The translations under genes were made by a program, and so were the position numbers. Shown here one piece after another: positions 17,701 to 57,361 of a stretch of DNA of 64,000 nt (the first letter of the stretch is position 1; each line of letters starts with the position of its first letter). Origin of the DNA: Asterella californica (lineage: Eukaryota > Streptophyta > Marchantiopsida > Marchantiales > Aytoniaceae); the NCBI GenBank assembly GCA_036924285.1, contig JAYKYS010000007.1:2914001-2978000 (forward strand), given 5' to 3'. The notes beneath the pieces were generated by a model. It was not told the origin of the DNA. It did no database searches and was given only the letters and a program-made list of their open reading frames with translations.

Positions 17701-18147
17701 CAACAAACGATGCATCCACTAAACCACCGCCGACAAATGAAGCAGCATCTCAAGCAAAGAAAGTCAAAACGGAACCACATTTGCAGAAAAGCGAATCTGA
17801 GTATTTGCGTCGATCGACAACCATAGTAAATTAGTTACAATGCCCGACGAGATACTCTGTGAAGTCGTCTCTAAACTACCGCCATCGATTGCACAGATTT
17901 CATCGAGTCTCAACACTCTCCAACCCCATCGAGTATGCATAGTGTAGCCAGCCTCCTCCGCTCTCCTATCGCAATGATAACATGCGATCCCACCAAAACA
18001 CCCAAAACCCTAGCCGCTCGCCGGGAACACCGTCTGCCGCTCTCCGGCCTGCGAACACAGTCTACCGCTCACCTGGCTACAGTGACAAGAAAGGGCGCCG
18101 CGTGCTAGCAAAGGGGTTTTATACCCGAACTTGTGGTTTAAAGCAAA
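14759..18147. other. AT-rich non-coding region
   Basis: No supported gene. At 15249 the 17 bp TAGGGCCACTCAAACTT matches the terminal sequence of the MITEs at 33157-33641, so an eroded MITE end is likely here. Longer minus-strand frames (16627-16878, 17259-17555) have no recognisable motifs. Confidence 0.4.
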
Positions 18148-38678: not shown

Positions 38679-39020
38679 CAGTGGTGTCACTATTTCTCAA
38701 ATTAAGGTGTGATCTAGCACTTGATTAAAGATTAAAGATTAAAGACGTTTTAATGCGAAAGTTAGGTGACTTGCCCGGTCACTATGACTGTTCGCGATCT
38801 GTTGTAGCGAGGTTGACCACACTGTTAGAGCCAAGTTCGACTACGGTAACGAGGGGACGAGGTGTGGAGGGGACGGCGGCATAGCGACGGCGAGGTATCG
38901 GGATATCGCAAGTGCAGAGTAGCCAGACAGCGAGAGCGGGGTAGCGCGATAGCGTAGCGACGGTGAGGTGATAGCGACATATCGACATTGCGGCATTCAC
39001 GGAATTCAAATGAGATAGTG
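38679..39020 (+). repeat. Left terminal inverted repeat
   Basis: Inverted homologue of 56030-56345. Differences are scattered substitutions and small indels, including an extra pair of GATTAAA units on this side. Confidence 0.8.
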
Positions 39021-39540
39021 GCATAGCGACGTGTAGCCGGATAGCGACGTAGCGAGGTGTAGCGGCATAGCGAGGTGTTTAGCGATAGAGGCGTTGCTGC
39101 ATGCTGCGAGAGCGGGATAGCGAGAGAGCGAGGATAGCGGCATAGTGAGAGTGATAGTGGCGCGAGGGTGGTCCGCGAGGGTGACAGAGGCTGCAGCGTT
39201 CGAGAGCGAGAGCAGGGTAGCGGCATAGCGACCAGAGCGAGGATAGCAGCATAGCGAGATATCGCGGTAGCGAAGCTGACAGCGGCGGTGAACGAGCGAA
39301 CGATGTTTAGAGAACGAGGTATCACGTTCCTAGCGAGAGTTTCAGTATCGCTCTATCGCTTGTGACAGCGACATAGCGAGGTGTAGCGGCGATCATAGCA
39401 AGAGTGAGGTATGTCGCAGCCGTGAGGGTGACAGCGGCATAGCGAGAGCGAGAGCGAGGTAGCGACATATCGACCTTCAGATAGCGAGAGTGAGCGGCAT
39501 AGCAAGAGCGACAGCGGCATAGCAAGAAAGAGCACCTGTT
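38870..39540. repeat. Left subterminal array of AGCGA / CATAGCGAG words
   Basis: Dozens of copies of (T/C)AGCGA in phrases such as GGCATAGCGACG, GACATAGCGAGG and GCGAGAGCGAG. Begins inside the TIR and runs well beyond it toward the transposase. Such arrays are typical binding arrays for transposase at transposon ends. Confidence 0.8.
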
Positions 39541-40467
39541 CTTGATCGTTATTGACAGCAGCTGAGAGAGCGAATTGACTTGACTGCACGGCAAGATGAG
39601 CATGTTCGCGAGAGAACGAGCTTTCACTTTTGGGAGGACGTTACGACATATTTACTAGCTCTATTGCGGAATCGATCATGTTTGCTACATGGAACGAGAC
39701 ATCATGTCACGAGAGACGAAGACATGCACGTATAGCGACGGGTTCATGTTTAGAACGGATTTTGTTCCAGTTTGAATGGTAAATTCGTCCAGCGTCTGAC
39801 ACAGCGCTCTCGTGATATTCAGACGGTGACATAGCGAGAGAGATGACGGCATGACCGAGCACTTGTTCTACAGAGCTCACCTGTTCATAGCTCTTTGGCC
39901 GCCTGAGTTGTAGCTACCGCGCGGCATCGAGCCATCGACGCGGCTGTGAGTAAACAAGACATTCATTCACAATTGTTTCATTTTGTTTTCATTGTTTATT
40001 GAACTTACGGCAAAGAGAGCGATTCACTGTATCGGCAAAGAGACAGAATCAGGAATTGGAATCCAGATTCATTGTACCGATTGGAGATGAAAAGATTTGA
40101 TCTGAGTAGTGCGGGACGATACACTCTTTGGGGATCAGGTTCTTTCACTACGACTTATTTTTTATTTCAAAGTTATCGTAAGTTCAATGAACAACGAAAA
40201 TCTAAGTTCGAATGTCGCAATGTTGAAGTGTTTACATTCATCGCTGTATCATTGTTTGCTTAGAAACAAATGTCGCTTAGTTTATTTTAAATTCATCGCT
40301 GTATCTTCCTTTGTAAACTGTGAATGTCGCAGTGTGGAGTAACGCAACACAGTTATCGTCTTGTTGCAATTCTAACACATTTTTGCAACGCCTTCTTATT
40401 TGAAGCTATTGTGCTTACACTCTGATTTAATGACACTGTTGACAGATATATTTGGAATGAAAACACA
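39541..40467. other. Region between the left array and the first transposase exon
   Basis: No confident coding. May hold the transposase promoter, 5' UTR and an undefined first exon. Near 40100-40335 a short phrase containing GAATGTCGCA(A/G)TGT and TTCATCGCTGTATC is repeated. Confidence 0.35.
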
Positions 40468-42402
40468 ATGTTGCTATCGTGTTACAAGGATCAACTTTTA
40501 ACTCGATTTACGTGTGTTCGCAAAAGATCCAACCCGTTCGACTTGGTAATTTTCATGACGTGTAACGCCTGTTATGCTAAAGCCGAGAGGAATGAAGGGA
40601 GTGCAATAGATGTCGATAATGAAAAAGACGCGAGCTTCTTAGTGACAAGTAGAGTGTGAGATGTCCGAAATATTTGACGTACTCAAAGAGTGTTTTTTTT
40701 GCCGCAGAACTGACTGAAGATAATGTTGTTTTTTGACAGTTCGTCTAACTGACGAGTCTATGACAGAGGAGTTTACGAGTTGGAACTCGAGTAATGGTAG
40801 TAGTAAATTGTCGTCTTGGGTCAAGATTCACGTCATTTCTTACTTAGAATTTGCTTGTTCGTATTATTGGGATGTCTGGAATCCACGTGCTAGCTCGAAA
40901 GAAACGATGATATTCAAAACGACCTTCTGGTGTGTCTCGGCGCTGCGACCAAATTACGTATGGGAGCCGAGCATCTACATCTACCTCGCAGCGCGCTCAG
41001 GAGAAAAAATGGAAGATCTGCAGGTTTGAGTGTGGAGGTACCATTCGAGTTATCTTAGACACATGCTCGAAAATAATGCTTCTAACTTGTCAACATTTGT
41101 TGATACATGAGAAACATACTTACAAGCTGAAAGCTTTTCCAAGAGAAGCTATTGTGTTTTTAGAGGACATCGCCATCATGAATATTCGTAAACTTGAAGT
41201 GTATCGGATGCTTAGCGATAGGGACATTATCAATCCTCTGAATATAACAAGGGCCCAAGTGAACTTTTGGATTTCTGAGGTACAGTCTAGACAGTAACTG
41301 CGTGACATCGATGACCAAGTGAGATCTACCTCACTATTGATAAGAAGTTCTAGATTTGCATCAAAGAACTTCGGGCAAGTGTTGTATGAACACACTGACT
41401 GCTTCATGTCCTTTGGGTTCTGCACTCCTTTCTTTGAGCGAACGAGTTCAGTACGCAAAATTGTATTAGATAGTACGTTCAAGATCAATTTTATGCGTTT
41501 TGAACTGTTCGTTGTAGCTGCTAACTTGGGAGGATTTGGTGTTCCGCTTGCATACTTGTTTTACTTGAAGGTTGGTGATGGTAAGAAGACCACCGGTTCT
41601 GAGACTGAGCAACAACGTAAGGCAGTGCTAACATCTTGGTTTGTGTGCTTGAGAGACAGAAGCTTGAAACCAGTTTTTGCCCTCACTGACAAGGACTCTG
41701 ATCAGATCTCGGCACTACGCATAGCGTTTGTTCCAATGAACATCCAGCTATATTTGAAGCATGTCCAAGCGGCTGTAGAGGTAAAATGTATGTCATTAGG
41801 AAAAGCATCAAGCTCTTATACTGGAGTAGAAGCAACTGCGATTTTCTCTTTCATTGATCCCGACTGGGTTCCAGCATCTATTCTTGATGGTACTAACTTG
41901 CCGGGAGTTCAAACCAGAAAAGAGGTGTTAACTTTGCTCACCAGTCACTACAATCTCCATCCACTTATTCCGAACTCTTCAGGTGAGTTCGAGTCATCAG
42001 AGGCTCTCCATGCAAGGCCAGTTCATGAAATGTATGACTGATGTAAACGACATAATTGTGTCTACATGTGGGGATATTTGTGGAGAGAGTGGTATAGTCC
42101 TGCGAAGTTCATCTTCAGCCGTTCGTCCAAGCCTCTCTTTATTTTATCTCGAAACACTACCATTGTGGAAAGTCACTGGAGAAAACTTAAACATGATTAT
42201 AAGTATGCGCTGAATAGACCTCGTCTGGACAAGTTGACTTTGGTAATAGCAGAAAGTTTGGTCGCTGACATGCAGATAGTGTTTGACCAAGTGCTCAATA
42301 GGAGGACGTTTCCTTCGTGGTGGGAGACCTTCAGAGTTACATGGCAGAAGCTTGCAACACATCCTATTTCGACTGCTTCCACATATTTGACTTGCAAGAG
42401 TT
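40468..42402 (+). pseudogene. MULE-type transposase, dead, 3' end cut by an LTR element
   Basis: An N-terminal exon (from about 40468, ending 40646 by a GT-AG intron to 40733) leads to a FLYWCH/zinc-finger-like block (CRFECGG ... TCQHLLIHEKHTY) and ITRAQVNFWISEV. Next comes the MULE catalytic core: KIVLDSTFKINFMRFELFVV (first Asp near 41469), FALTDKDSDQISALR (second Asp near 41690), YLKHVQAAVEVK at the position of the usual CxxH, YLWREWYSP, and TTIVESHWRKLKHD (probable catalytic Glu near 42170). All three acidic residues remain. Damage: a frameshift at an A-run near 41010, TAA at 41295-41297 in place of an aromatic residue, TGA at 42039-42041, and interruption at 42403 where the LTR begins, before the expected SWIM zinc finger. 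I do not see the C-terminal SWIM segment after the LTR insertion. Confidence 0.8.
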
Positions 42403-43308
42403 GTAACGACCTATGTTACACATAGGAAGTTTGTCTATTAGTAAGGTGTTTAGTTATAACTAAGGGTTGAGAATGTTTATTTGCTGCCAAAGTACTTTAA
42501 GGAGGTATCAAGTTAGTCATGACTAGCTAAAAGTTAGTTATGGTTAAACTTAGTTGTACTTTTGGCAGAATTCAGATATTTGCTAAAGAGTGAGCACTAC
42601 TATCTTGTCATCTTGTCTAAAAAGTAGAAAGGAGGTGGAAAGTATCCCTTATTTCTTTTTTGACTTGATATTAGTGGTTGGATTAAAGTTGTGGACTTTG
42701 TGGGCATTAAAAACAAGAAGAGATTCCACATGTTTCCTTTTTAGTGGGTCTTAGTGTAGAAGGGGGGTGGAAATTCGAGATTCCTTGAGAATATTCCAAA
42801 ATCCTTCTAGAAGTTGTTGACTTTGAAAGAATAAACCCATGTGAAAAGCCCATGTGATTAATGCTTTTACCTTAAGTAATATCTTAGTAAAACCCGGTAA
42901 AAGTAGTTACGGCTGAGTTACCGGAGGGTACCAAAGTAAAAACCTAGAATGTATAAATAGAGGAGTAGAGAAGAGCTCCTCATCCTTGTTTTCAAATCGT
43001 CGTAATGACAACTTGAGTAATATAGAGAGTGTGGGATATTTTTAGCATGTGAGAACTTGAGAGACGTAGTTAGAATAGAAGGATTTTAGTTGATGAGTTT
43101 ATGGAGATCTTTAGTTGATAAGTTTGTGGGTGTATGAATGAGTGAACTTAGCATTTTTCCCTTCAAGATTCATGGTGTGCTTCCATCAAAGCCATCAGAG
43201 GTGACCCTTGAGTGAGAGACAGACCCGACATTTGCAGATTCATCGATGACGATCGTGGTGGTTGAGAGATCGGGGGTAGTTGATCGATGGGATCGTGAAG
43301 GGTTTACA
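42403..43308 (+). mobile_element. Ty3/gypsy long terminal repeat (LTR1)
   Basis: Begins TGTAACGACCTATG inside the transposase and ends TTTACA just before a tRNA-Asp-type primer site. TG..CA ends with TGTAA/TTACA inverted tips. TATA box GTATAAATAG at 42951. Two two-unit heat-shock elements at 42789-42796 (GAATATTC) and 42805-42812 (TTCTAGAA). Length about 906 bp. The 3' partner with the same sequence is not in this window. Confidence 0.7.
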
Positions 43309-43312
43309 TTTT

Positions 43313-43330
43313 TGGTTCCGTTATCGGGAT
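43313..43330 (+). promoter_or_regulatory. Degenerate tRNA-Asp primer-binding site
   Basis: TGGTTCCGTTATCGGGAT corresponds to the plant Ty3/gypsy PBS TGGCGCCGTTGCCGGGGA with C-to-T and G-to-A changes, five bases after the LTR end, as is usual. Confidence 0.65.
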
Positions 43331-43353
43331 CTCACTTGAAGGGATCATTGAAA

Positions 43354-43524
43354 ATGTTTAGAGTTCAGTTTTATATTAGACAAAAAGAAATTATGAGAGA
43401 ACACATGGAGAGAACGTTGGGAGGAGAGAGAGCTAACGCGATATTAGCAACATTGGAACCTTTCGTGTATCCCATAGTGATCTATGACGCATTCGAGGTT
43501 ATTCTTTACATCTTGTTCACTTAG
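43354..43524 (+). CDS. Small ORF upstream of gag (accessory ORF A)
   Basis: 56 residues from ATG at 43354. Pattern: ...IMREHMERTLGGERANAILA, then LEPFVYPIVIYDAFEVILYI. It shares the order RE-(H/F)...G(G/E)(R/D)...(S/L)(P/E)....P-V/I-V.Y......V..LY with the two ORFs at 50827 and 51048 downstream of the second LTR. The frame is open further upstream, through the PBS into the LTR, but that part is probably not translated. Function unknown; not a capsid, protease or polymerase motif. Confidence 0.45.
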   Translation: MFRVQFYIRQKEIMREHMERTLGGERANAILATLEPFVYPIVIYDAFEVILYILFT

Positions 43525-44177
43525 AAAGAGTTTGAGGAGAGTCGAAAGGGGATGAAACAAGAGTTTAGAGAAAGGAGGAGAGAGAAGTATTAGAGAAGAA
43601 AATTTTCCGAGTTTGAGGATTTCTGCTCTTTGGAAAATTTTTACAGTCATTGTCAGATTTTCTGTGAAACTTTCAAGGATTGTAGCTTGGCTGATAACCT
43701 ATCTACGACAAAAGAAATCATAGGAAAAAGGTGGTCTAAAGAGGGAGCAATGAATTTTCAAAGTTGAGGGTGTCTATTCGTGAGAGTTGAGGAATTCTGT
43801 TCTCTGGAAAAAGTTTACAGTCATTGTCAGATTTTCTGTGAATTTTATTTCTTGAGAAACTTTCTAGTGTTTTAGATTGGCTGATAAGCTATCTAGGACA
43901 ACAGAAATCAAGAGAAAAGGTGGTATGGAGAGAGAGCCATGAATTTTCAAAGATGAGGGGGTTGAAAGCCATGAGAAAAGTGAAAATATACAAATTTCAG
44001 TTCTCTGAAAATTTGTACAATCAGCACCATCTCTTTTGATTAAAGAATTTTCTATTGAAATTTCATTAGTAAGTAGCTTGGAGGTTGAGCTACTGGAGAT
44101 CACAAAAATCTTAGAGAGATCTCTTACCGATTAAGAGATATACGGTTCGACATACAAGGAGGTCTTGACGATACGTC
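43525..44177. other. Internal non-coding part of the LTR element with a ~180 bp internal duplication
   Basis: TTTACAGTCATTGTCAGATTTTCTGTGAA is present at about 43639 and 43816, with matching flanks (AGAGGGAG / GGAGAGAG, GCTGATAA(C/G)CTATCTA). No coding motif. Confidence 0.5.
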
Positions 44178-44396
44178 ATGAGGAATCCAGTTCGAGTGCC
44201 GAGGTTGAAGAAGAGACGTTTGGGAGTTAGAACGGAGACGGAAAAGCTAAAGTTAACTATAGAGGCGTTGCGATCAAGCATCTATTGCAAGTGGGGTGCC
44301 ATTTTTGCTTTATATCAAGAAGCTTCTGCGAGCATCGGCACAAATGCGAAGAAGGTTGAGTTCAAAGTATCATTCACTGTAGAGGCCACGAAGTAG
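44178..44396 (+). CDS. Small basic ORF of the LTR element, unknown
   Basis: 72 residues with a basic start (MRNPVRVPRLKKRRLGVR) and ALYQEASASIGTNAKK. No recognised family. May be a relic of an untranslated leader or an accessory ORF. Confidence 0.25.
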   Translation: MRNPVRVPRLKKRRLGVRTETEKLKLTIEALRSSIYCKWGAIFALYQEASASIGTNAKKVEFKVSFTVEATK

Positions 44397-44605
44397 AGTG
44401 TGATCCTTACAAAAGTGACTTTAAGATGTCTGCTAGGATTAGTACAGATGATGGTCATGAAGATCTTATCATGGACTCTTAATTTTAGATGGGATTTTAT
44501 TTCGTGTATAGCATGTATAATATACGATTTTCAGTATAAAGCTCGAAAGAGTTAAGAAAGTGATGTAGAGTTATTTTCCTCAAAGATATTTTGTCCACTT
44601 AATGG

Positions 44606-45097
44606 TTGAGAAGGTGCAACATGAGTGGAAGTTCAAAAGATTGGAAAGTTAGACTTAGAAACCTTCCTCAAGGTTTAGATGTCATAGTAAGCGTCGGAGA
44701 GAGCTCGAAAGAGATTATCGTTGAGTTTGAGAACCCTAGTACAAAACCTCAAGTAGAATCTCCGAGGAGAAGAGTAGAAACCGACTTGTGGTGTTATTTC
44801 TGTAGAGGGTTGAGACATAAAGTAGTGAATTGTCCAACTAGAATCAGAACCGAGAGAGCTAAAGGGAAGCGGGAGTTTACTGATTTAAGTCTTCGAGTGG
44901 GTCCATTGTCACCAGCGCCAATTCATCTTCTAGGAGAAGATCTTTGTCCAAGTTGTGGAGTGGGTGATCTATCAAGAGGACACAAGTGCGTCGATATGGC
45001 CGCTCTACTTACGTCAGTAGTCGAGAAGTTGGACGAGACTCAAAGAGCTGAGACGGAGAAGTTGTCGACTTCAAAAGAGGACTCGGCTGAATTGTGA
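44606..45097 (+). CDS. Zinc-knuckle ORF upstream of gag
   Basis: 163 residues. CYFCRGLRHKVVNC (near residues 65-78) is a perfect CX2CX4HX4C zinc knuckle, normally found in nucleocapsid. A second Cys/His cluster, CPSCGVGDLSRGHKC, follows. No gag capsid domain, protease or RT. It sits before a complete gag-pro ORF that has its own weaker knuckle. It could be an accessory RNA-binding protein or the tail of another damaged gag. Confidence 0.5.
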   Translation: MRRCNMSGSSKDWKVRLRNLPQGLDVIVSVGESSKEIIVEFENPSTKPQVESPRRRVETDLWCYFCRGLRHKVVNCPTRIRTERAKGKREFTDLSLRVGPLSPAPIHLLGEDLCPSCGVGDLSRGHKCVDMAALLTSVVEKLDETQRAETEKLSTSKEDSAEL

Positions 45098-45310
45098 TGG
45101 AGATCGTCATTCGGATGGTTGAGAAGACGATGATGCGACTCAGGCTCATGATTACCTTGAGAGAAGAGATGACACAAGAGGTGTTGTTACAACCATTTCC
45201 TTTCATTTTATCTATGGTAGATTATTCGCGAATGGAATTGGTGATGTTCGTACTCTTTTAGCGAGTAGTTATTGCACAAAAATTAGAAGGGTAGAAATAA
45301 TAGTTACAAG

Positions 45311-47167
45311 ATGGGGAAGTTACCAGTGTTTCATGAGAAGGACAATGAAGATGTAGAACCATTTGTACGAGACTTCAAAAGGGATTGCATCCGAAACAAC
45401 GTGAGAATGAAGGAAGAATGGGTGTTGTTACTGCTAGATTTTTTAGAAGATTTTGCTCTTACGTGGTATGAAGACCGAGTGAAGAGCAAGACACCTGGTG
45501 CAGTTGAGGACACATGGGAGACGTTGAGTAATGCATTCATCGAAGAATTTCTTCCAGAAGAGAGTTATGAGAAGCTCATGGTGGAGCTTACTCATTTGAA
45601 GCAACGGGACGACGAGAAAGTTCAGCAATATGCCGAAAAGGTGGATAAGTTGGAGCAACGATTTCGGACGATCCTACGGAAGAGTGGAGACAATGTGGAG
45701 CTAACGATGACGAGGATTGGAGCAATGTTGATCAAGAACTTGGTGGGAGGGTTGAGGCCTTCAATTCGAACCCAAGTGAGGTACGAGAAGCCAGCAACCA
45801 AAGCGGAGGCCATCAAGATTGCGACAAATATGGAAGAGAGTTTGGATGAAGGAGATATCATCCAACCTCATCATGCTGCTCTGGTGTCGACTCCGACTCC
45901 TGGTGTAGCCACAACGATCGCACCTGCACCATCACAATTGGTGATTGCTTCAACGTCAGCTCCTACTCCAACTGTGGTGCCAAGACCGTTTGTCCCAACA
46001 ACGATGTCTACTGCCACCTCTGATTTTCATGCCGAGTTGAAGAGCATCATCGATACTCTTGCGGATCTCAAGATAAACGTGGTGCAGTTACGAGAATGGA
46101 GGAACAAAGGTGGAGGAGGAGGTCAAAGAGGTTACGACAACAATCCCAACCGAGGAAATCAAGGTAACTTTAGAGGCAACCAAGGTAACTTTGGAGGAAT
46201 CACTTGTTGGACGTGTGGAGGTTCTCATTTCCAGCGAAATTGTCCTAACAACGGAGCAAGAGGTGCCGAAGCTGTCAGAATGAATGTGGGTGGAGGAAAT
46301 CCATCACAAGGACGAGACAAGAGGGTGGCTACTATCGATGTCGTGCGAGATCCCATATACGAGAAAGGAGAGAGTTCAAACTCTTCTCATGCACCGGTGG
46401 AGCTTTTAGCTCAAGAAAGGAAAAGAACTCAATTTTCTGATGAACCAGTTTTCATGGAGGAGTCAGCAAGTAGAAGTACTCGTTCGAGTAATGTTTCGAG
46501 TACACCAAGGGAGCCAAGAAGGAAGCTGGGGATGGCGGATTTCACCATTTCATCTTCCCAAGCGGGATATGATGTGGTTGAAGATGTGGGTGCTCAGAAA
46601 GCCAACATCACTGTTGGACAACTGATCGCACTTAATCCCAACTTACGAAGGGAACTCAGAGGAGGACTGAGTTCTAAGAGAAGCAAGAAGAAGAAACCCA
46701 AGAGCAAGACATCAAAGTCTGTGAGAGTTGGTGTGGTGGATGTGCATGCTTCAGAGGTATGCACTAGAGCTTCAAAGATTGAAGTCCGGTTGAATGGTCA
46801 CTATGTCTCTGACGTATTGGTGGATGGAGGATCGGCTGTAAACGTCATATCGGAGAGGTTGATGAAGAAGTTGGGGATGGAACCAACTCGTCCGGCTAGC
46901 ATTGTCGTGGGGATGGCTAACAAGCAACGGGTAAGACCTCTTGGTGTGTTAGAGAAGGTGGTCGTGTCTGTGATGGGAGTTCAAACATTGAGGTCCTTTC
47001 AAGTGTTAAAGGACTCTAGTTATGATTTACTCCTAGGTAGGCCTTGGTTGAGAGTTGTGCGCATCACTGATAGGTGGCACAAGGGATACTTACGGATTGG
47101 GCCTAGAGATCATAGAGTGATAGTACCTCTCTCGGGTGTTGGAGTACACTCTCATAGACTCTTCTGA
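45311..47167 (+). CDS. Ty3/gypsy Gag-protease ORF
   Basis: 618 residues from ATG at 45311. Residues ~10-190 are the retrotransposon Gag capsid domain (FALTWYEDRVKSK, LPEESYEKLMVELTHLKQRD, VGGLRPSIRTQVRYEKP). A Thr/Pro/Ala-rich linker and a Gly/Asn/Arg-rich segment follow. CWTCGGSHFQRNC near residue 299 is a knuckle one residue shorter than the CX2CX4HX4C norm. After an acidic/basic linker (SKRSKKKKPKSK), residues ~490-600 form an aspartic protease: VLVDGGSAVNVIS (active-site D with GG in place of the usual SG/TG) and DLLLGRPWL flap-side motif. RT lies in another frame after the stop. Makes capsid and matures it. Confidence 0.85.
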   Translation: MGKLPVFHEKDNEDVEPFVRDFKRDCIRNNVRMKEEWVLLLLDFLEDFALTWYEDRVKSKTPGAVEDTWETLSNAFIEEFLPEESYEKLMVELTHLKQRDDEKVQQYAEKVDKLEQRFRTILRKSGDNVELTMTRIGAMLIKNLVGGLRPSIRTQVRYEKPATKAEAIKIATNMEESLDEGDIIQPHHAALVSTPTPGVATTIAPAPSQLVIASTSAPTPTVVPRPFVPTTMSTATSDFHAELKSIIDTLADLKINVVQLREWRNKGGGGGQRGYDNNPNRGNQGNFRGNQGNFGGITCWTCGGSHFQRNCPNNGARGAEAVRMNVGGGNPSQGRDKRVATIDVVRDPIYEKGESSNSSHAPVELLAQERKRTQFSDEPVFMEESASRSTRSSNVSSTPREPRRKLGMADFTISSSQAGYDVVEDVGAQKANITVGQLIALNPNLRRELRGGLSSKRSKKKKPKSKTSKSVRVGVVDVHASEVCTRASKIEVRLNGHYVSDVLVDGGSAVNVISERLMKKLGMEPTRPASIVVGMANKQRVRPLGVLEKVVVSVMGVQTLRSFQVLKDSSYDLLLGRPWLRVVRITDRWHKGYLRIGPRDHRVIVPLSGVGVHSHRLF

Positions 47168-47195
47168 CTCTGATAGACCCACTAGTGACTATTAG

Positions 47196-48949
47196 GAATC
47201 TGATACGGAAGATGATCAGAGTGTCTCAGAAGTAGATACCGGAGATTCTTACGATCAAGAATCCTCGTCTGAGGACGAAGGATTTGATCGAGATGAATCA
47301 TTACATCAGCTTAGTGCTATTGACTTGTTGCCTCGACCAGCAGTGGAAAAAGATTCTGACAAAGAAGAGTTGAGTGAGGCAGAGATTGTGAGAAGACTCT
47401 CTACCATGAAGTTTGGTATCAATGTTACTCAAGAGGAGAAAAGTAGATTCCTAGATATATTTCGAAAATATATCCATGTGTTTGATTTCAGCTACAAGGA
47501 TTTGAAAGAGGTGACTCTCAAGACTCATCGAATCGAATTGGAGGAAAATGCAAGACCAGTTCGACAAAAGCAGAGAAAGGTCAATCCTACAACAACAATG
47601 ATGGTCAAGGAGGAGATAGACAAGTTGAAGGAAGCGAGTTTCATCTATGAGGTGGAGAACTCAGAATGGGTTTCACCCATTGTGATTGTCAAGAAGAAGA
47701 ATGGTAAGCTGCGAGTGTGCATAGACTATAACAAGTTGAATGCAGTTACCAAGAAGGATTATTATCCTCTACCATTATAGATCAGATTTTGGAGGAAGTT
47801 GCTGGTCATGAGTGGTACAACTTTGGTGAGAGTTATAGTGGACATAACCAGATCAAGATAGCACATGAGTACCAACAGTTGACTACTTTCACTACTCCTT
47901 GGGGAACATTTGCATTTCGGGTGATGCCATTCGTACTGTGTAATGCTCCGGCCACGTTTCAAAGGTTCATGAACAAGGTGTTTGAACCATTCATAGGGAA
48001 GTTTGTTCGGGATTTCATTGACGATTTCTGTGTGTACGGAAGAAAAGAGGACCACTTTGATCATGTGATCAAAGTTTTGCAGCGGTTGGAGCAAGCCAAC
48101 GCTTCTCTAAATCCAGAGAAGTGCATCTTTGGCTGCGAAGAAGGTCTACTGTTGGGACACATCATTTCCAAGAATGGGATTGCGGTAGATCCCGAGAAGG
48201 TGAAGAAGATTATGGATCTTCCATTTCCGATCAACTTGACAAAGTTGAAACAATTTCTTGGCATGGTTGGATATTATCGTAAGTTTATCTTTTCCTTCTC
48301 AAACAAAGCAATAGCTTTGACTATGTACATGAAGAAGGGAGTTGATTTTGACTTGATAGTGCATGATCATAAGGCAAAGGAAGCATTTGAGGAGCTGAAA
48401 AAGGCATTAGTGACAGCTCCTATACTTGCTAAACCTGAGTGCAGTAAAGCATTTATTCTGTATACGGATGCCTCCAATGTAGCAATTGGATGTACATTAA
48501 GTCAGTTAGATGGAGATGGGCATGATCATCCTATAGCTTATGCTAGTAGGCAGATGGTTCCAGCGGAGAAGAATTACTCCGTGACTGAACGAGAAGGATT
48601 AGCGGTGATCTTTGGATTGAAGAAATTTCGACACTACTTGCTAGGAGGAAAATTTTTCATAGTCACAGATCACAAGGCTTTAAAGTATATCTTTAATTTG
48701 CTTAATGCCAAAGGTCGTATTGCTCATTGGAAGATCCTTCTAACAGAATACGATTACGTGATCGAAGATAGACCTGGGAAAAAGCATACGAATGCTGATC
48801 TTTTGTCGAGGGCTTATGATGATGAGGGAGAAGAACCGTTTGATGATTCATTTCCAGACGAACATCTGATGACCATCACAAGCACTGAGGAGATACCGGA
48901 CGAGTACAAGAAAATCTGGAGTTTCCTTACAGATGGTTCTTTTCCATAA
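47196..48949 (+). pseudogene. Ty3/gypsy reverse transcriptase and RNase H, frameshifted
   Basis: An acidic Ser/Asp/Glu linker in one frame (47196-47780) leads into RT ([37 protein letters not shown]). One base is missing at about 47778, and RT resumes in the gag-pro frame: EEVAGHEWYNFGESYSGHNQ, MPFVLCNAPATFQRF, FVRDFIDDFCVYG (motif C intact), then RNase H (YTDASNVAIGCTLSQ, TEREGLAVIFGLKKFRHYL, VTDHKALKY). Motif A carries Glu in GESYSG where the family has the catalytic Asp (LDGYSG), and MPFGL is MPFVL. With the frame change from protease and a TAA at 48947-48949, this copy cannot make an active polymerase. Confidence 0.85.
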
Positions 48950-50200
48950 GGTATGCATATTCGAGAACGTAACGCGTTGATCAAGAGATGCAAACCTTAC
49001 ACCATGGTGGAGGGAATTCTGTTTCATCAAGGAGCAGATGGGTTACTAAGGAGAGCAGTTGGTCAGAAGGAGGCATTCAAGTTAATGCACGCGTTTCACG
49101 ACGGAACTGTTTGCGGAGGTCACTTTGCTGGTAAGATAACAGCATTCAAGATTTTGGATGCGGGTTATCACTGGAGAGGGATTTTTAAAGAGTGTTTAGA
49201 CTATTGCAAAACTTGTGACGTATGTCAAGCATTTGCTCTAAAGTCTACTAGAACACCTCCGTTAAGATCAACTCCAGTATAAGGGCCGTTTGAGAAGTGG
49301 GGTATTGACTTTGTAGGTCCTCTTAATAAGACACCTCGAGGCAATAGATACATTGTAGTCGCCACTGACTATTGTACCAAGTGGGTAGAGGCTAGACCTT
49401 TGAGGGAGACTAATGAAACAGAAGTCGATAGATTCCTATGGGAGAAGATCGTCACCAGATTTGGATGTCCGTTAGAGTTGGTCTCAGATAGAGGAGGAGA
49501 GTTCGTAAGGAGCATGACTATTGCTATGCTACAACACTTTTCTATCAAGCCACGAGTAACGACCTCATACAAACCAAATGCTAATGATCTTGCGGAGAAG
49601 ATCAATCTCACACTCTGTATGATGCTCGTCAAAGATGCTGGTGTTGAGACTGCGAAACATACTTGGGATAAGAGGCTACATGCCATCTTATGAGAGTATC
49701 AAACAACAACAAAGACTTCTACTGGATACTCCCCATTTCGACTGATTTATGGAGTGGAGTCCAAGTTGCTCATCCAATTGGATACTTTTCAAACTATTCA
49801 ACGAAAGTTGAAGAGGTCGAGAGGAGAAGATGTGGTCAGATCAAGAAGGGAGCAACTCATGGAGTTAGAAGAGACCCGAGCGATAGCAATGATCCGGATG
49901 GAACGAGCTCAAGCGTATCAAAAGAAGAGTTACGACAAACGGTTGGGCAAGAGGGAGGTAAAACCTTTTCAAGTCGGAGATTGGGTAATGTTGTATGATG
50001 CTATCAGATTCAAGAGGGTTAGGAAGAAGTTTCTTCCTAGATATTTTGGTCCTTTTGTTGTAGATAAGGTGTGGAGCAACTTCACATATGACCTTCAAGA
50101 GTTGGGAGGAAGGAGATTCGATCGGGTCAACCATGACAAGTTGAAGTTGTTTCATCGACGAAAGTTCTCTCTTCACTCCGAAGACGGAGCGAAAATTTAG
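48950..50200 (+). pseudogene. Ty3/gypsy integrase with two internal stops
   Basis: Continues the same frame as RNase H. Zinc domain HHCC: HAFHDGTVCGGH ... CKTCDVCQ. Core: WGIDFVGPL (first Asp), LVSDRGGEFV (second Asp), and LAEKINLTL where the Glu is in place. The C-terminal part (SYDKRLGKREVKPFQVGDWV, then FGPFVVDKVWSNFTYDLQEL) ends at TAG 50198-50200. Nonsense codons: TAA at 49280-49282 before GPFEKWG and TGA at 49691-49693 where the family has Trp. A polypurine-like AGTCCGGGGGTAAAA follows directly before the next LTR. Confidence 0.85.
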
Positions 50201-50378
50201 TCCGGGGGTAAAATGTAATGACCTATGTGTAATAAGTAGAGTCCTACTTATCAACTAGAGGAGAAATTGGTCTGGTAGAAGTCCTTGGTATAAGAATTAG
50301 TTATGGCTAAGTTGGCCAAAGAATACATGCAGCAAATAGTACTTCTACCAATAGGCGAGTGCGCCAAAAGTCCGCCGG

Positions 50379-50506
50379 GAAACTTCCAGAAGGAAGTTTC
50401 TAGAAGGAAGCTTCTAGAAGGAAGTTTCTAGAAAGAAGCTTCTAGAACTTTCCAGCCGGGAAGCTTCCAGAAGGAAGTTTCTAGAAAGAAGCTTCTAGAA
50501 CTTTCC
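50379..50506 (+). promoter_or_regulatory. Array of perfect heat-shock elements in LTR2
   Basis: Perfect three-unit sites: GAAACTTCCAGAA (50379-50391), TTCTAGAACTTTC near 50441, GAAGCTTCCAGAA near 50459, and TTCTAGAACTTTC near 50493, all with the 2-base spacing of HSF trimer sites. Additional TTCTAGAA pairs lie between. The block is a ~54 bp unit repeated with one internal expansion. It lies about 130 bp upstream of the TATA box at 50640. Confidence 0.85.
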
Positions 50507-50639
50507 AGCGAGCCTTCTACGTGGTTCATTCTGAACCTCTAGATGTTGTTCTAGATCTAAGGCTGCATGTAAGCCACATCAGCGATCCGCGTGAGAGATG
50601 AGCATTGGCCGGAAGCTTATCATGTACTATTCCTCTCAC

Positions 50640-50649
50640 TATATAAAGG
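50640..50649 (+). promoter_or_regulatory. TATA box of LTR2
   Basis: TATATAAAGG about 70 bp before the LTR end, the usual U3/R position. Confidence 0.7.
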
Positions 50650-50710
50650 CTGTGAATGCACCACCACGGGCATTCGAGTTTCGAGTTCACTCTAGAGCCT
50701 CATCTTACAA

Positions 50711-50724
50711 TGGTATCAGAGCAG
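50711..50724 (+). promoter_or_regulatory. Initiator tRNA-Met primer-binding site
   Basis: TGGTATCAGAGCAG, one base after the LTR2 end, matches the plant iMet PBS TGGTATCAGAGC. Confidence 0.9.
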
Positions 50725-50826
50725 GAAACTCTAAGAGAGCGGATTACCCCTCTTAGAAGGACCTTTGATCGAGGTACCTAGCAATTGGAACTCTGAGTGC
50801 GCTGAAAGGATCAAGAGAGCTATGCG

Positions 50827-51042
50827 ATGGATGGGGGTAGATTTCCAGCTCCAGAATTACCATTCTTGAATCCTTTTCATATCAAGCTTATGTATATGCG
50901 TCGAGAGCATTTTCGAGTGTATCTTGTTTATCATTTCGGTGAGGATTTCATGGGTCAAGTGATGAATTCGCCAGTCCTGGTGATTCTTCCAGTAGTGACA
51001 TATGCAGCTAGTTGGGATTTGACCGTCTACATCTTGATTTAG
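50827..51042 (+). CDS. Small ORF upstream of gag (accessory ORF B)
   Basis: 71 residues. LYMRREHFRVYLVYHFGEDF-type region: REHFRVYLVYHFGEDFMGQV, then SPVLVILPVVTYAASWDLTV. Its 3' end meets the start of ORF C, and the two are clearly related, so this looks like a tandem gene duplication. Function unknown. Confidence 0.45.
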   Translation: MDGGRFPAPELPFLNPFHIKLMYMRREHFRVYLVYHFGEDFMGQVMNSPVLVILPVVTYAASWDLTVYILI

Positions 51043-51047
51043 TGAGC

Positions 51048-51251
51048 ATGGATCTAAACTTACCCGCTCCTGTTCCCTTCAACACGTGGATGGAGATCCG
51101 CTATGTTTGCAGACCGAAATCGTTACATAGAGAGTTTGTGATTAGAAATTTTGGTGAGGATTTCTACCGCGAGATAATTGATTCTCCTGTCCCTTTTGTA
51201 GTACCTGTAGTATACGAACGTTTCCGAGTGGCCGTCATAACTTTGTACTAG
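51048..51251 (+). CDS. Small ORF upstream of gag (accessory ORF C, paralogue of B)
   Basis: 67 residues from ATG at 51048, six bases past ORF B's stop. LHREFVIRNFGEDFYREIID, then SPVPFVVPVVYERFRVAVIT. Shares NFGEDF/HFGEDF, SPV..V.PVV.Y and the hydrophobic end with ORF B. Both start LPAP/APELPF-like. Confidence 0.45.
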   Translation: MDLNLPAPVPFNTWMEIRYVCRPKSLHREFVIRNFGEDFYREIIDSPVPFVVPVVYERFRVAVITLY

Positions 51252-51298
51252 GAGAAGCTTGAAACTTACATGTCGTAAGAGAGAGAGAGAGAGCGATC

Positions 51299-52567
51299 AT
51301 GGAGCAACAACCTCCAAATCCAGAGTTGGTGATGCAGGAACTGATGCAAGGCATGTTGACCGAATTTCGAGAAATGAAGATGACGGTTGAAGCATTACAG
51401 AACAAAATGCTGAACCTCGAGGGTCAGAGTATGACAGACGTTGCAAGAAGAGGACCGTCTCAAGGAGTACCGGTGGTGGGAGAGCAAGCTGCACCAAGAG
51501 AACCCGTGGCACAAATCGTTAGAGCTCCAGTCGATGAGGAAGGTGCCCTACTACTACGGATGAAGAAGACATGTAACATTGAACCGTACAAAAGCCAACG
51601 ACTTATGGGAGTAGTCGAGAATTGGATTTCTCGGATGAATCGATATTTGCGACTTTTCAGTACGCAAATCACGGACCACGTAGCGGGAGTGTTTGCGTGT
51701 GGCTACTTGACTGATAAAGCTCTCACGTGGTATGATGCATGGGAGAGATCGGTGTTGGCGGAAGGGAGGACAGTCACATGGACTGCAATGCAAGAAGGGT
51801 TGTTGAAGAATTTCCAGTCTGTGGACTCGGTGCAAATGGCTCGAACGAGGATGTGAGGATTGAAACAGAAGGGAAGCCTTCAAGAGTATGTAGAAGCCTT
51901 CCTCGACTTGCAAGTTGCAATCACTGATATGAGTCCGGCGGAGGCTCTTGATAATTTCAAGAGGGGGTTGAAGGAAAGAATTCGACAAGAAGTAATGGTG
52001 CAAAACCCACTCACGGTTTTTGAGGCCATCGCTTGCACTCAGAGAATTGCTGGAGCATTAGGAGGAGAAGTGATGATTCCACCAAATCATCAGAATAGAT
52101 CCGAAATCCCGTATGCAAACGGTCCGACACCCATGGAGCTAGGCAACATCCGCTATCAGCCACGACAATTTCAAGGTGGAGATCGTCGAGGGCGGTCAGA
52201 AGAAAGACGTCGAGGAGCTCCTAGAGGAGAAGGTGTCAGGAATGCTACACCTCAACTCGAGCAACGTCGATGTTACAGCTGTGGGCGATTCGACCACATA
52301 GCTGCACCTCGCGGCCTTACTGGTGCAAGGAGGGAGAAGAAAGGCGAGGGAAGGAGAAGGAGATTGACAAAAAACAATGCACAATTGATTGTCACGGATG
52401 GAGTCTTGGAAGGGACCCAGGTGAGAGTACTAATTGATCCTGGTGCAACAGAGAACTTTTTGTCTCGATCGACTGCTATGAAGTTGGGAATGGAGTTAGA
52501 AAGTGATGAGAATGAAGAGGTAGAACTGCCCAATAGAACCCTAAGTGGTTCTCTGAACCAAGGTTAG
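51299..52567 (+). pseudogene. Second Ty3/gypsy Gag-protease, one nonsense codon, truncated
   Basis: Starts MEQQPPNPELVMQELMQGML with a coiled-coil-like N-terminus. Capsid region: VAGVFACGYLTDKALTWYDA, TWTAMQEGLLKNF, then TGA at 51854-51856 (Arg codon expected), the same frame continuing GSLQEYVEAFLDLQVAI and FKRGLKERIRQEV. CYSCGRFDHIA starts a zinc knuckle that loses its last Cys. Protease start: VRVLIDPGATENFLS. The frame ends in unrelated sequence at 52567, before RT. It is a different family from the 45311 gag. Confidence 0.8.
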
Positions 52568-53560
52568 AACCTTGGGTTAGGACACAAGGGCCTACCCCAA
52601 GAGGGCCCCAGACGAACGCTGACCTAAGGGGGCGAGACTGAGAACGGGCTGAAACATGAGTCTCAGACATAGGTCTGAGACGTGGGTCCGAGACGTGGGT
52701 CCGAGACGCAGACGAACCACAGGGTTCGACCCTGGGTCTGGACCACAGGTTTTGGAAAAACTGCTAAGTGTTGGAGCTCCAGGGACGTTTTAGGTCGTGG
52801 ACGGAGCTCCACGTAAGATCTCGAGGCGAGTGAGATATCATTGGAAAGGTCTCGTCGAGAGCTTTCCAGTGATATATAACACTCCTCGATCTGACCTCCG
52901 AGCTGGAAGTTATGGCCGAACCACAATCGGGTTGTGGTATAATTTTCAGGGACCAAAGAGGAGGGCGGGGCCGCCGATCCCCAGAAGTATATATGAGGGG
53001 GGCTCGATGCCTGGGTGGGCCATGACGAGTCACCCGACCCCAAGGTTTGGCAGGCGGACTCTGGGGGTATGAGATGATGGCTGGGCCAGTTCCAAGGCAC
53101 GTTCCGATCTAGACTTGAACGTCTAGACTTAGGAACGATGTAAGGGCTGGGACAAGACTAGGGAACGAGTCGGCGGGTTAGACCACCGTTCGGGAACCTA
53201 GACCCAGACGGACATCACGGGCGGTTGGGCCGCTAGGTGTGCTGGAGGCACCGTTTAGGACCTTGGACTTTATGGGAAGTCCGCCCCAAGTCATATTGTG
53301 ACTTGCTCATGTTTGGGACCGACTTAGGCGGATCTAAGTCGGGACTTAGGATTGCTGAGCTTGATGATTAGGGAGACAGTCCGGCTCCGGTCCGGACCAA
53401 ACAGAACTAAGGTAAGTGGTGCATGGACGCTAACTTGTGATTGTGTTTGCAGGTTAGCGGTGTAAAGTTTGCGACCTACTGAGCTAGAGCTTCCGCTGGC
53501 GCAACAAGGCGGTAGGTGCGTGAAACTCATTGTGGTTCAAAAATACTAGAGTAGTTGTAA
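52568..53560. other. GC-rich block, possibly part of another LTR or unit
   Basis: Clearly higher GC than its flanks. Near 52556 an AACCAAGGTT / GAACCTTGGGTT palindrome; 52655-52715 has GGTC(T/C)GAGACGTGGGT repeated three times. Towards the end, CGCTGGCGCAACAAGGCGGTAGGTGCGTG resembles U5 regions of plant gypsy LTRs. No coding motif. Cuts the second protease. Confidence 0.4.
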
Positions 53561-54733
53561 ACTTATAGTGTAAGTGTAAACGTTTGCGTTCGTAATAAGG
53601 GTGTGGTCAAGTAAATCCATGCTACAGTACATAGAGGTGGAAAAAATCGTCAAGAAATACAGATAAGGTATGATTTTGTTGTCTATATGGTTCAAGGTCC
53701 TTATAATGCTTTAACTTCGATTTAACGGGATAATATGCCTTACCCAAAGTGAATGACGTTTACTTAAAGTATGAACGTAATGAACGTAATGAATACAATG
53801 CTAGCGTTCTATGGAGAGGCATGGACAAACTAAGTTCGCAAACTAACTAACTCTCTCCAGAACACATGCAACGTTTATATTTCTCTCCGAATCCAGGTAA
53901 AGGACGACATAGACTTGAACAGTAACTCCGCCCTCATGACGACATGTGCCCGGGAGCTATAGTCCTTCCACGTCTTATCCATCACCCTCTTTGAGTAAGA
54001 TTGTCTTGCAAATCGGTACTCTCTGTTGTAGCTTAGCATCAATTAGTATATATACATAGTTGATCAGTGGGCGGAATCATATGTGATATGTGGTTCATAA
54101 CCCATCCTCACAACTCGCTCGGTTGATAACAAGAAAACCAATGGATCAATTAAAATAGTCACCTCCTTTCAATCGGTTGAGTTCACAGAACCAATGATGG
54201 ATTAATTTAAATAATAAACATAAACATTCACATGTACCGTCTGTCGAGGATCTTAAGGCACACCCTGTTCTGCTTCAAGACCCAAGGGTCCTGAAGAGGA
54301 GATAGTGTTGTCTTTCTTTCAATCTGCGCAGTGCCAAGTCCCGTCGAGACTAATCCACTACACTTAGCAAATGAGAAGACTCGAGTCGAGTATCCACTAA
54401 TAGTCCTATTATGCCAAAAGGAAAAGTTCACTACACTCTGCAAATGAGAAGACAAGAACTCGGCTGAGGGAGAGGGAACATAAAGCTTCTATCACTAGTA
54501 CTGGAGCCTTGTCTCTTTTATGCCAGTAAGTAGTTCTCACGATAAGAATAAGATCTTCTACCTAGTACCGAAACATGGACAAACTAAGTTCGCTGTTAAC
54601 CAGAAGAACCATGAACCTGCCGAGTTAACAACATCCATCGTGAGACTACCGACAGCAGGCAAAGGTTCCAAACCTGCTTCGTCATCAGTAACCTAAACTA
54701 CCCTGTCGGGGTGTGCTAAAGCAACTACAACTT
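53561..54733. other. Unassigned interior of the large element
   Basis: No convincing ORF. ATGGACAAACTAAGTTCGC occurs at about 53822 and 54576, and CAAATGAGAAGAC at about 54369 and 54441. Confidence 0.4.
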
Positions 54734-55051
54734 TCGTGTATACTAGCGCTAGCGGAGGCCAATGAGACTCTAGTGTCCGCAGATGAAGATGTAGCAAAAG
54801 CAATGATGGAGGGTGTACAATAGAGAGTTCGTGATGCTGAGATTGCTGTACAAAAAGCAGAGAAGCAAGCTGCGTCAAGAGCAGCAGCTTTCGCTGCACC
54901 AAAGAGAAACTTGCACAACAAGTTCGAAAACCTCCAGAGTCCCATTCCCTGTACGATCCACAACTACACGATCGATAAACTTGATGAACCTCAAACAGGA
55001 AACGATATCGTCAGGATGGAGGTTCACTTCGAATTTCTTCCACAATCCTAG
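54734..55051 (+). pseudogene. Helical Ala/Glu-rich coding relic, perhaps the transposase C-terminus
   Basis: One frame reads LALAEANETLVSADEDVAKA, one TAG (about 54822), then RVRDAEIAVQKAEKQAASRA, ending KLDEPQTGNDIVRMEVHFEF and a stop at 55049-55051. Coiled-coil-like. Same strand and order as the transposase, so it could be its tail beyond the LTR insertions. No SWIM motif is seen before it. Confidence 0.35.
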
Positions 55052-55057
55052 TACGGG

Positions 55058-55794
55058 TCAACTCCATCTCCACGCAACAAGCATGCCTAAGACGAACAAT
55101 GTTATTGTTATGCTCATAGCCCCTATAAAAAAACCTACGTAGAATTCACTACTTCTGATACGAGCGTGAAAAAGCAGTACATTCGAACTATTGTGCACTT
55201 CATCTTCAGCTACACGCGAAGCGCCATCATTTTCAATCCGTTGATCAGATCCAGGGAGATGATTGTGCTCCTCTCTAGATGATGACTCCGACGTGTTGCT
55301 TACAACATCAGTGGTCGAGGTCTCTGATGAAAACAATACGCGTTTCACACAAGGATTTGTCTGCTCGATCCTCATGTATTTCTCATCGAAGTCTTCTTCT
55401 TGAGAGCAGTCAGTTTTACGATCCAAAAACTCCCGACGAGTCTCTCTAGTAAAACAATACCCTCGTCTTTCTGCTCCAGTTGGTGAAATTCGTCCGCTGA
55501 CATTTGCAGTAAACTTGAAGACGCGTCCCAAGCCACGGCCCAGCTCTCAGTCGACTCGTCCACGATCAACAGTAACCGATAACATCTTCTCATGAGACTC
55601 ATCTTTCGACATCGATTACAATACAAGTGCGCCGCTATGAGCTTCTTTCCACAGTTGAAACACCCATCGTAGGTCCGAAATCCGTCTTTCTCATAAATGA
55701 GGATCTGCATTTTCATTCGAACAGTTTTTGACGTTCTTCCACTCTCAAGACAATCGAGTACATATTGCAAGTTTACATGAGCATCCGCTTTCAT
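55058..55794 (-). pseudogene. RPA-like C4 zinc ribbon/OB-fold protein with C-terminal membrane segment, one frameshift
   Basis: Starts at ATG 55794 (minus), just inside the right-hand array. CFNCGKKLIAAHLYCNRC is a CX2CX10CX2C zinc ribbon. It is followed by YRLLLIVDESTESWAVAWDA, then LLQMSADEFHQL and LLERLVGSFWIVKL, the strand order of the RPA70 C-terminal OB-fold (YRL-V-D-T, FD/WD, SA-EL, G--W-F-L). After FWIVKL one base appears missing (near 55420), and the last OB strands (EEDFDEKYMRIEQTNPCVKR) lie in the next frame. An acidic Ser-rich linker follows, then a hydrophobic helix (YVGFFIGAMSITITLFVLGM) ending WRWS at the stop 55058. RPA-type proteins bind single-stranded DNA. A membrane helix is not expected in the family. 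It could be intron-spliced rather than frameshifted. Confidence 0.65.
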
Positions 55795-55869
55795 CGCACA
55801 TTACGCCTTATGAACAATAACCCACTAGACTCGAATGAACTAGCAACTCCAGTTGAATTTGAAATATAG

Positions 55870-56345
55870 GACACTGGTACCTCTCTCTCTCTCGCTATCG
55901 CTTTGTGCCCTCGCTCTCACTATCCCGCTATGATACTTGCCATTGTCATCCTCGCATCCGTGTCCATCGCTCACAACCAACAGTAGTACCTCATTCATGC
56001 CACTGTCACACTCGCTACGAACCGCTGTCACCTTCGCATCGAATTTGAATTTGAATTCCGTCAATGTCGCTATGTCGCTGTCACCTCACCGTCGCTACCC
56101 TACCGCGCCGCGCTACTCCGCTCTCGCGATATCTCGATACCTCGCCGTCGCTATGCCGTCGTCTCCTCTACACCTCGTTCCCTTTTTATTGTAGTCGAAC
56201 TTGGCTCCAACGGTGTGGTCATCCCCGCTACAACGGACCGCGAACGGTCACAGTGACCGGACAAGTCACCTAACTTTCGCATTAAAACGTCTTTAATCTC
56301 CACACGCTCGATCACACTTTAATTTGAGAAATGGTGACACCACTG
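55870..56345 (-). repeat. Right subterminal array and terminal inverted repeat
   Basis: Read on the minus strand from 56345, it gives the same ordered blocks as 38679-39020 for about 320 bp and then AGCGA-type repeats down to about 55870. The start of the RPA-like gene lies directly inside. Confidence 0.8.
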
Positions 56346-56997: not shown

Positions 56998-57361
56998 AAT
57001 TTGCTTGATCACACCCCCAGTAGGTTCCTTGAGCTTGATCACACCCCTCTTACGATGTATGGCTTGATCACACCCTTGACTGGCTGTTGCCTGTAAAACC
57101 AGTCACTTTGTGATATTACTCACATGTGAGACTGCACATATTAAATTTCAGAGCATGTATAGTCTAATTATATTAAATAATGTTAAATATTTTGAATTAC
57201 ACTGATATTTAGTCAAAGTTGGAAGTACTAAAATGATGAACCAAAAGATAAAATGACTGGTTCTACTGTCAATAACCTGTCAAGGGTATGATCAAGCTTA
57301 AGGAACCTAAGAGGGGTATGATCAAGCTCAAGGAACCTACTGGGGTGTGATCAAGCAAATT
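56998..57361. mobile_element. Foldback MITE with ~110 bp inverted arms
   Basis: Both ends read AATTTGCTTGATCACACCCC inward. The arms continue AGTAGGTTCCTTGAGCTTGA and carry three spaced copies of CTTGATCA(C/T)ACCC each, followed by CCAGTCA(C/T)TTT. The centre is ~150 bp of AT-rich DNA. Total 364 bp, no coding. Confidence 0.9.

What the first reader, a model, noticed from the sequence alone, without database searches (positions are those of the whole stretch)
38679..56345. Large MULE-like transposon with a convergent transposase and RPA-like gene pair
Seen: inverted terminal regions of ~320-340 bp, AGCGA arrays at both ends, a MULE-type DDE transposase pointing in from the left, and a zinc-ribbon/OB-fold ORF pointing in from the right end. 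Known: MuDR in maize has two genes transcribed convergently from its TIRs, and the second (mudrB) has no clear homology. Inference: this element fills the mudrB position with an RPA-like single-strand-binding protein. RPA-type genes are known from Helitrons, not as the second gene of MULEs as far as I know.
Basis: partly seen in the sequence, partly recalled or inferred. Interest (0 to 1): 0.85.

Follow-up and report, generated by a model that had tools for sequence, protein, structure and literature searches.

The report
Dead Mutator-type transposon carrying RPA-like ORF
A plant genome window holds an old, broken Mutator-type jumping gene whose far end carries a reading frame resembling part of a single-strand DNA-binding protein, an unusual partner for this kind of transposon but seen here in one damaged copy only.

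Summary
The anatomy is real. Inverted repeats of 333 and 303 bp (38679-39011, 56043-56345; 89% identical without gaps) face each other across 17.7 kb. Inside the left end is a defective transposase with all three DDE positions. Its best hits are proteins of the liverwort Riccia (41 and 44%), and a tree groups it with them. Near the right end, pointing inward, a 142-codon frame matches part of the RPA1 C-terminal DNA-binding domain (Pfam E 7e-7, just above the curated cut-off).

Limits. Ty3/gypsy-type retroelement domains fill much of the interior (45287-52567). The transposase's C-terminal zinc-binding part was not found. No target duplication exceeds chance. The RPA-like match covers 88 of 146 domain positions and had no relative in two limited protein searches. 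Genome copies, the decisive test, could not be examined: the genome search did not complete.

Best reading: an old two-gene MULE with an RPA-like ORF where MuDR has mudrB. A captured passenger is the main rival. Convergent second ORFs in MULEs are already in print; an RPA-like one was not seen in the nine paper searches made.

The parts
38679..39011 (+). left terminal inverted repeat, tip CAGTGGTGTCAC
   Evidence: aligns with the complement of 56043-56345, 89.4% identity over ungapped columns; BLAST homology reaches 38676/56348
39012..39540 (+). subterminal AGCGA/TAGCG-rich array
   Evidence: 21 AGCGA on the plus strand in 39001-39500, against 81 on that strand in the whole window; internal repeats
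40483..40626 (+). possible N-terminal zinc-ribbon piece of the transposase (weak)
   Evidence: profile from 5 relatives, 3.4 bits, domain E 0.015 for six frames; a minus-strand frame in the same scan reached 0.037, so it is little better than chance and rests on its order
40736..40900 (+). second N-terminal piece of the transposase, another frame
   Evidence: domain E 0.0011 for six frames; covers the YYWEV region of relatives
40911..42398 (+). main part of the MULE-type DDE transposase, with in-frame stops TAA 41295-41297 and TGA 42039-42041; catalytic D (DSTFK), D (TDKD), E (VESHW) kept
   Evidence: 42 homologues at E<=0.001; Pfam MULE domain E 0.033, below the cut-off, for the window ORF
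42402..52567 (+). retroelement-type sequence that cuts off the transposase: LTR-like start TGTAACGACC at 42402; gag, protease, RT and RNase H domains within 45287-48949; LTR-like start TGTAATGACC at 50214; tRNA-Met-type primer site at 50711; protease and weak gag at 51263-52567
   Evidence: domains only where Pfam was run (5 ORFs here); the two LTR-like starts do not align beyond their first bases, so element number and borders are not settled; LTR and primer-site labels are recalled readings
55372..55800 (-). RPA1-C-like ORF (zinc ribbon C-x2-C-x10-C-x2-C); first ATG at 55794; stop at 55372-55374
   Evidence: Pfam Rep_fac-A_C E 7.3e-7, 29.5 bits (cut-off 28.5); TIGR00617 rpa1 E 1.8e-4 at 460-551 (20.2 bits, cut-off 334.2 for whole RPA1); CDC24_OB3 E 0.0018, below its cut-off
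56043..56345 (-). right terminal inverted repeat

Best explanation
This is one old, immobile DNA transposon of the Mutator (MULE) type in a bryophyte-like plant genome, later invaded by Ty3/gypsy retroelements. When alive it had two convergent genes. One was a DDE transposase that would bind the long ends and the left AGCGA array, cut the element out and insert it elsewhere. The other was an RPA1-C-like protein that would bind single-stranded DNA exposed at transposon ends or donor gaps, or hand it to host repair, so taking a helper role like that assigned to mudrB. Shown here: the ends, the transposase family and its DDE residues, the partial RPA-like match, and its position and direction. 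Inferred: the host group, that the two genes belonged to one element, that both were expressed, and every step of the mechanism.
For: Inverted ends with a shared outer border and no third end in the window. A transposase inside the left end with conserved DDE positions and 42 homologues. The window copy groups with 10 Riccia rows, support 100/99. The RPA-like ORF begins about 250 bp inside the right repeat and faces inward. Three related profiles hit that ORF, while its reversed sequence hit none of them (the rpa1 profile was not run on the reversed sequence). No relative was found among candidates of 136-432 residues (E<=0.001) or 264-840 residues (E<=10), which speaks against a recent capture of a conserved host RPA1 gene.
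Against: One copy only. No target duplication above chance. The transposase C-terminus was not found after the retroelement sequence, so continuity between the left and right halves is not shown. The RPA-like match covers only positions 8-95 of 146, barely passes the cut-off, falls below it in 3 of 4 longer read-throughs, and is not reported in a 981-residue one. The reversed control itself gave unrelated chance hits at E 0.0057 and 0.01, so the CDC24_OB3 hit (0.0018) adds little. The open length alone is not unusual: 21 of 300 resampled sequences had a run of 142 codons or more. None of the 10 relatives scanned of 42 shows an RPA domain at E<=0.1, though a separate partner gene would not appear there. 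The folded model was too poor to use (mean pLDDT 45.8), and no solved RPA structure was matched by sequence.
Confidence: 0.45

Rival explanations
1. The element is a MULE, but the RPA-like ORF is a passenger: a fragment of an RPA1-like gene captured by this copy or lineage, with no role in transposition.
For: MULEs are known to capture gene fragments, and additional ORFs are often assumed to come from the host genome (PMC6431247 and PMC6446971, passages). Only part of one RPA1 domain is recognisable (positions 8-95 of 146), and no other domain was found beside it.
Against: No relative among the protein-search candidates, which a recent capture from a conserved host RPA1 gene should give; the search needs shared 5-residue words, so this is limited. 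Pack-MULEs as described have lost the transposase, and this element has one.
Confidence: 0.3
2. The RPA-like ORF belongs to another mobile element, such as a decayed Helitron, inserted near the right end.
For: RPA genes are known from plant Helitrons (PMC4683698, abstract and section 9), and the interior holds other insertions. That paper also found two extra RPA paralogs in the moss Physcomitrella and the alga Chlorella branching at the same level as Helitron RPAs, which it thought possible contamination.
Against: No Rep or helicase domain in six frames of 53400-54350 and 54300-55400 (one search covered 53400-56345 but was insensitive, since it missed the RPA match itself). PMC4683698 reports its plant Helitron RPA clade only in monocots and dicots. 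Helitron end signals, and a Rep/helicase in the rest of the window, were not tested.
Confidence: 0.13
3. The two ends come from two different, truncated or recombined copies of one transposon family, and the space between is not one element.
For: No target duplication above chance, transposase C-terminus not found, about 11% difference between the ends and LTR-like sequences that do not match each other.
Against: Exactly two ends found in the window, correctly inverted, with the transposase inside one of them.
Confidence: 0.12

Closest known systems
MULE transposase family of Riccia sorocarpa and mycorrhizal fungi (for example R1sor_024588)
   Same: 41 and 44% identity for the two best hits, shared DDE positions; the tree places the window copy with Riccia
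   Different: the window copy is broken and its C-terminal zinc-binding part was not found; ends and neighbours of the relatives could not be seen
MuDR of maize
   Same: long inverted repeats and a second ORF running against the transposase (PMC6446971 and PMC9168764, passages; repeat length recalled)
   Different: the second ORF here matches part of RPA1; mudrB is described there as of unknown function. No mudrB sequence was compared here
Abermu MULEs of grasses (ORFR)
   Same: second ORF opposite to the transposase, between it and the 3' inverted repeat, unrelated to mudrB (PMC9168764, passages)
   Different: ORFR function is not known there; 'RPA' does not occur in that paper's main text
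Plant Helitron RPA (PHRPA)
   Same: element-borne RPA homologue (PMC4683698, abstract and section 9)
   Different: those sit in rolling-circle elements and were found in flowering plants; here the ends are long inverted repeats beside a DDE transposase

Membership tests
Mutator/MULE superfamily | DDE transposase of the MULE type | tested here: met
   DDE positions aligned with 9 of the 42 relatives; PF10551 E 0.033 in the window ORF (below cut-off) and above cut-off in 2 of 10 relatives scanned
Mutator/MULE superfamily | long terminal inverted repeats | tested here: met
   333 and 303 bp
Mutator/MULE superfamily | 8-11 bp target-site duplication | tested here: not met
   at lengths 8-11 the best in-register agreement is 5 bases, reached by 24-68% of random place pairs; 4-of-4 and 5-of-6 matches with tips moved out by 3 and 2 bases are each reached by 4%. 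The copy is old, so I place the transposase in the superfamily and file the whole element only provisionally
Mutator/MULE superfamily | C-terminal zinc-binding (SWIM-like) part, as in relatives | tested here: not met
   profile from 12 relatives; after 42398 nothing better than domain E 0.4 (sequence E 0.099); the frame is cut off by LTR-like sequence at 42402
MuDR-type two-gene element | second gene running against the transposase, next to the other inverted repeat | tested here: met
   ORF at 55372-55800 on the minus strand; expression not testable
MuDR-type two-gene element | second gene homologous to mudrB | not tested
   no mudrB sequence was used
RPA1 C-terminal (DBD-C) domain | profile match above curated cut-off | tested here: met
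   29.5 bits against 28.5, 30.1 for a trimmed piece; partial, positions 8-95 of 146; 28.6, 27.9, 26.4 and 25.8 bits in longer read-throughs and not reported in a 981-residue one
RPA1 C-terminal (DBD-C) domain | OB fold | tested here: inconclusive
   model pLDDT 45.8, not usable, no fold search made; no solved RPA structure matched by sequence
Helitron | Rep/helicase gene near the RPA gene | tested here: not met
   no family at E<=0.5 in six frames of 53400-55400; the rest of the window was not fully scanned
Helitron | Helitron end signals | not tested
   no scan was made
Pack-MULE passenger | cargo closely similar to a host gene | tested here: inconclusive

The most novel reading that the evidence does not exclude
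A lineage of bryophyte MULEs carries its own RPA-like single-strand-binding protein as a true second gene, a convergent solution to the need met by mudrB in maize and by RPA in Helitrons.
Probability: 0.33. Interest if true: 0.65.

Novelty: new variant of a known kind. Interest (0 to 1): 0.42.

Why it matters
Why some cut-and-paste transposons carry a second protein is unsettled: mudrB is described as needed for insertion but of unknown function (PMC6446971, PMC9168764, passages). A MULE whose second gene is a recognisable single-strand-binding protein would point to handling of single-stranded DNA at ends or gaps and make the question testable. The transposase family, found here in a liverwort and in mycorrhizal fungi, may also bear on transfer between the two, which was not tested.

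Tried and rejected
Search for genome copies: the genome search was sent the same request fifteen times and never answered. Relatives in viral contigs (transposase alignment; RPA-like ORF) and prokaryote genomes (transposase alignment): none confirmed. Known RNA families in the window: none.

Adjacency of Riccia locus tags as a test of gene pairing was planned, but the RPA-like ORF had no hits, so it could not be used.

Structure prediction of the RPA-like ORF alone: pLDDT 45.8, so no fold search was made. Sequence search of solved structures gave one unrelated weak hit and no RPA. Phage families gave only weak hits of unknown function.

A target duplication was looked for with tips shifted by up to 4 bases and lengths 4-12 (of which lengths 6-11 were printed; in register with random pairs). 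The 4-of-4 and 5-of-6 matches with shifted tips are each reached by about 4% of random pairs; with nine lengths tried this is not evidence.

A matching LTR pair for the retroelement sequence was sought and not found. The rest of the transposase was sought beyond 42398 and not found.

Rejected: that the pairing of the ends is chance. Not rejected: captured passenger, foreign insertion, recombined ends.
Full report
The region. The window is plant DNA: two chlorophyll a/b-binding protein frames lie at 27611-28270 and 36029-36766 (Pfam was run on the second only). Its transposase is closest to proteins of the liverwort Riccia sorocarpa, so I infer a bryophyte host, probably a liverwort. No tool named the organism.

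The ends. A repeat of 333 bp at 38679-39011 is inverted at 56043-56345 (303 bp). The alignment has 334 columns: 270 identical, 32 with gaps, 24 transitions and 8 transversions, 89.4% identity without gaps. The score is 362, against at most 28 in 200 shuffles. BLAST gives 80% with gaps and an outer border at 38676/56348. A BLAST of the ends against the window at E<=0.001 finds no third end, only a short match inside the left array. The AGCGA motif is concentrated on the left and only weakly on the right; a bin outside the element (63501-64000) has more than the right end. No target duplication stands out: 4 of 9 bases agree at the natural tips. In register, lengths 8-11 give at most 5 matching bases, which 24-68% of 5000 random place pairs equal or exceed; 4-of-4 and 5-of-6 matches with shifted tips are each equalled by about 4%.

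The transposase. The main frame runs from 40911 to 42398 with two in-frame stops. A search returned 42 proteins at E<=0.001. By the names given, 12 are from Riccia, 21 from genera that I recall as arbuscular-mycorrhizal fungi, 1 from Mycena and 8 unnamed. The best two are Riccia proteins with 41 and 44% identity; two unnamed metagenome proteins and then Paraglomus follow. In an alignment with 9 of the 42, the D of DSTFK and the D of TDKD are invariant and the E of VESHW is nearly invariant. The Pfam MULE match in the window ORF is weak, E 0.033 and below the cut-off; it passes the cut-off in 2 of 10 relatives scanned. A profile from 5 relatives finds two earlier pieces in other frames: 40736-40900 (domain E 0.0011) and, weakly, 40483-40626 (domain E 0.015, while a minus-strand frame in the same scan reached 0.037). 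These may be frameshifts or unrecognised introns. A tree of 31 of the 42 proteins plus the window puts it with 10 Riccia rows at support 100/99. Eleven proteins were left out: two short Riccia ones and nine that I did not list. In that call Mycena fell into the unnamed group through a text match of mine; this does not affect the Riccia result. Transfer of MULE transposases from plants to Rhizophagus has been proposed before (PMC5982333, passages); I did not test whether it is the same family.

What interrupts it. At 42402 the reading frame runs into sequence that starts like a retrotransposon LTR (a recalled reading). Gag, protease, reverse transcriptase and RNase H domains follow within 45287-48949, and a protease with a weak gag match at 51263-52567. 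The LTR-like starts at 42402 and 50214 do not align beyond their first bases, so I cannot say how many insertions there are. A profile of the transposase C-terminus, from 12 relatives, finds nothing convincing after 42398 (best domain E 0.4), and a tblastn of C-terminal pieces against 50200-55400 gave a best E of 0.042 to unrelated parts. I infer that the original element was several kilobases shorter than 17.7 kb; continuity across the insertions is also inferred.

The RPA-like ORF. On the minus strand, 55372-55800 is open for 142 codons, with its first ATG at 55794, about 250 bp inside the right repeat. Pfam Rep_fac-A_C matches residues 33-113 at E 7.3e-7, 29.5 bits against a cut-off of 28.5. 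The NCBI family rpa1 matches at E 1.8e-4 at 460-551 of 608, far below its whole-protein cut-off, and CDC24_OB3 at E 0.0018, below its cut-off. The reversed sequence hit neither Pfam family, but it gave unrelated chance hits at E 0.0057 and 0.01; it was not run against the NCBI library. A trimmed piece scores 30.1 bits; four longer read-throughs score 28.6, 27.9, 26.4 and 25.8, and a 981-residue read-through gives no report at E<=0.5. The match covers only positions 8-95 of 146. An open run this long is not rare by itself: 21 of 300 resampled sequences had one. Two protein searches found no relatives, one at E<=0.001 with 41 candidates and one at E<=10 with 116 candidates. Six-frame scans of 53400-54350 and 54300-55400 found no other domain at E<=0.5. 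The structure model was not usable.

Reading. The simplest account is one old MULE-type element with two inward-facing genes. A passenger captured by a MULE is the main rival, because that is known behaviour of the group. The evidence that would separate them is recurrence in other copies, which I could not examine.

Compared with what is known. Second ORFs of MULEs in print include mudrB, mutB of Mutyl and vanB/vanC of Hiun (PMC6446971, passages) and ORFR of Abermu, which like mudrB runs against the transposase (PMC9168764, passages). RPA genes are described in plant Helitrons; the clade was found only in monocots and dicots, though the same paper notes RPA paralogs of Physcomitrella and Chlorella branching at that level, possibly contamination (PMC4683698, abstract and section 9). 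In the nine paper searches made, seen as listings, and in passages from PMC6431247, PMC6446971, PMC13359780, PMC9168764, PMC9033089 and PMC7385966, I saw no MULE with an RPA-like gene. The library holds open-licence papers only, and no paper was read whole.

Noticed in passing
27618-28266 and 36111-36759: Two chlorophyll a/b-binding protein genes in inverted orientation, 97.4% identical DNA over 649 bp: an ordinary gene duplication.
   Followed up: partly
56998-57361: A 364-bp self-inverted repeat just outside the right end, with six copies of GTGTGATCAAGC at up to one mismatch; the same motif with one variable base occurs once in each MULE end (38707, 56306). The pattern has 12 matches in the window against 1.6 expected. 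In the small repeat the motif lies in the opposite direction relative to its ends. One-mismatch copies also lie at 32186 and 32397, facing each other.
   Followed up: partly
10840-11925: Two adjacent open frames with a possibly transposase-like look by eye; no Pfam match at E<=1 when read through.
   Followed up: no
18138-18712: Tandem array of a unit of about 182 bp, 3.2 copies, with related sequence at 7925-8062.
   Followed up: no
55058-55546, minus strand: A 162-codon frame overlapping and following the RPA-like ORF, ending in a hydrophobic stretch by eye; no Pfam match and one weak NCBIfam hit at E 0.11.
   Followed up: no
52567-53600: Stretch of unknown origin between the last retroelement ORF and the right part of the element; G+C about 0.50 for 52001-54000.
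   Followed up: no
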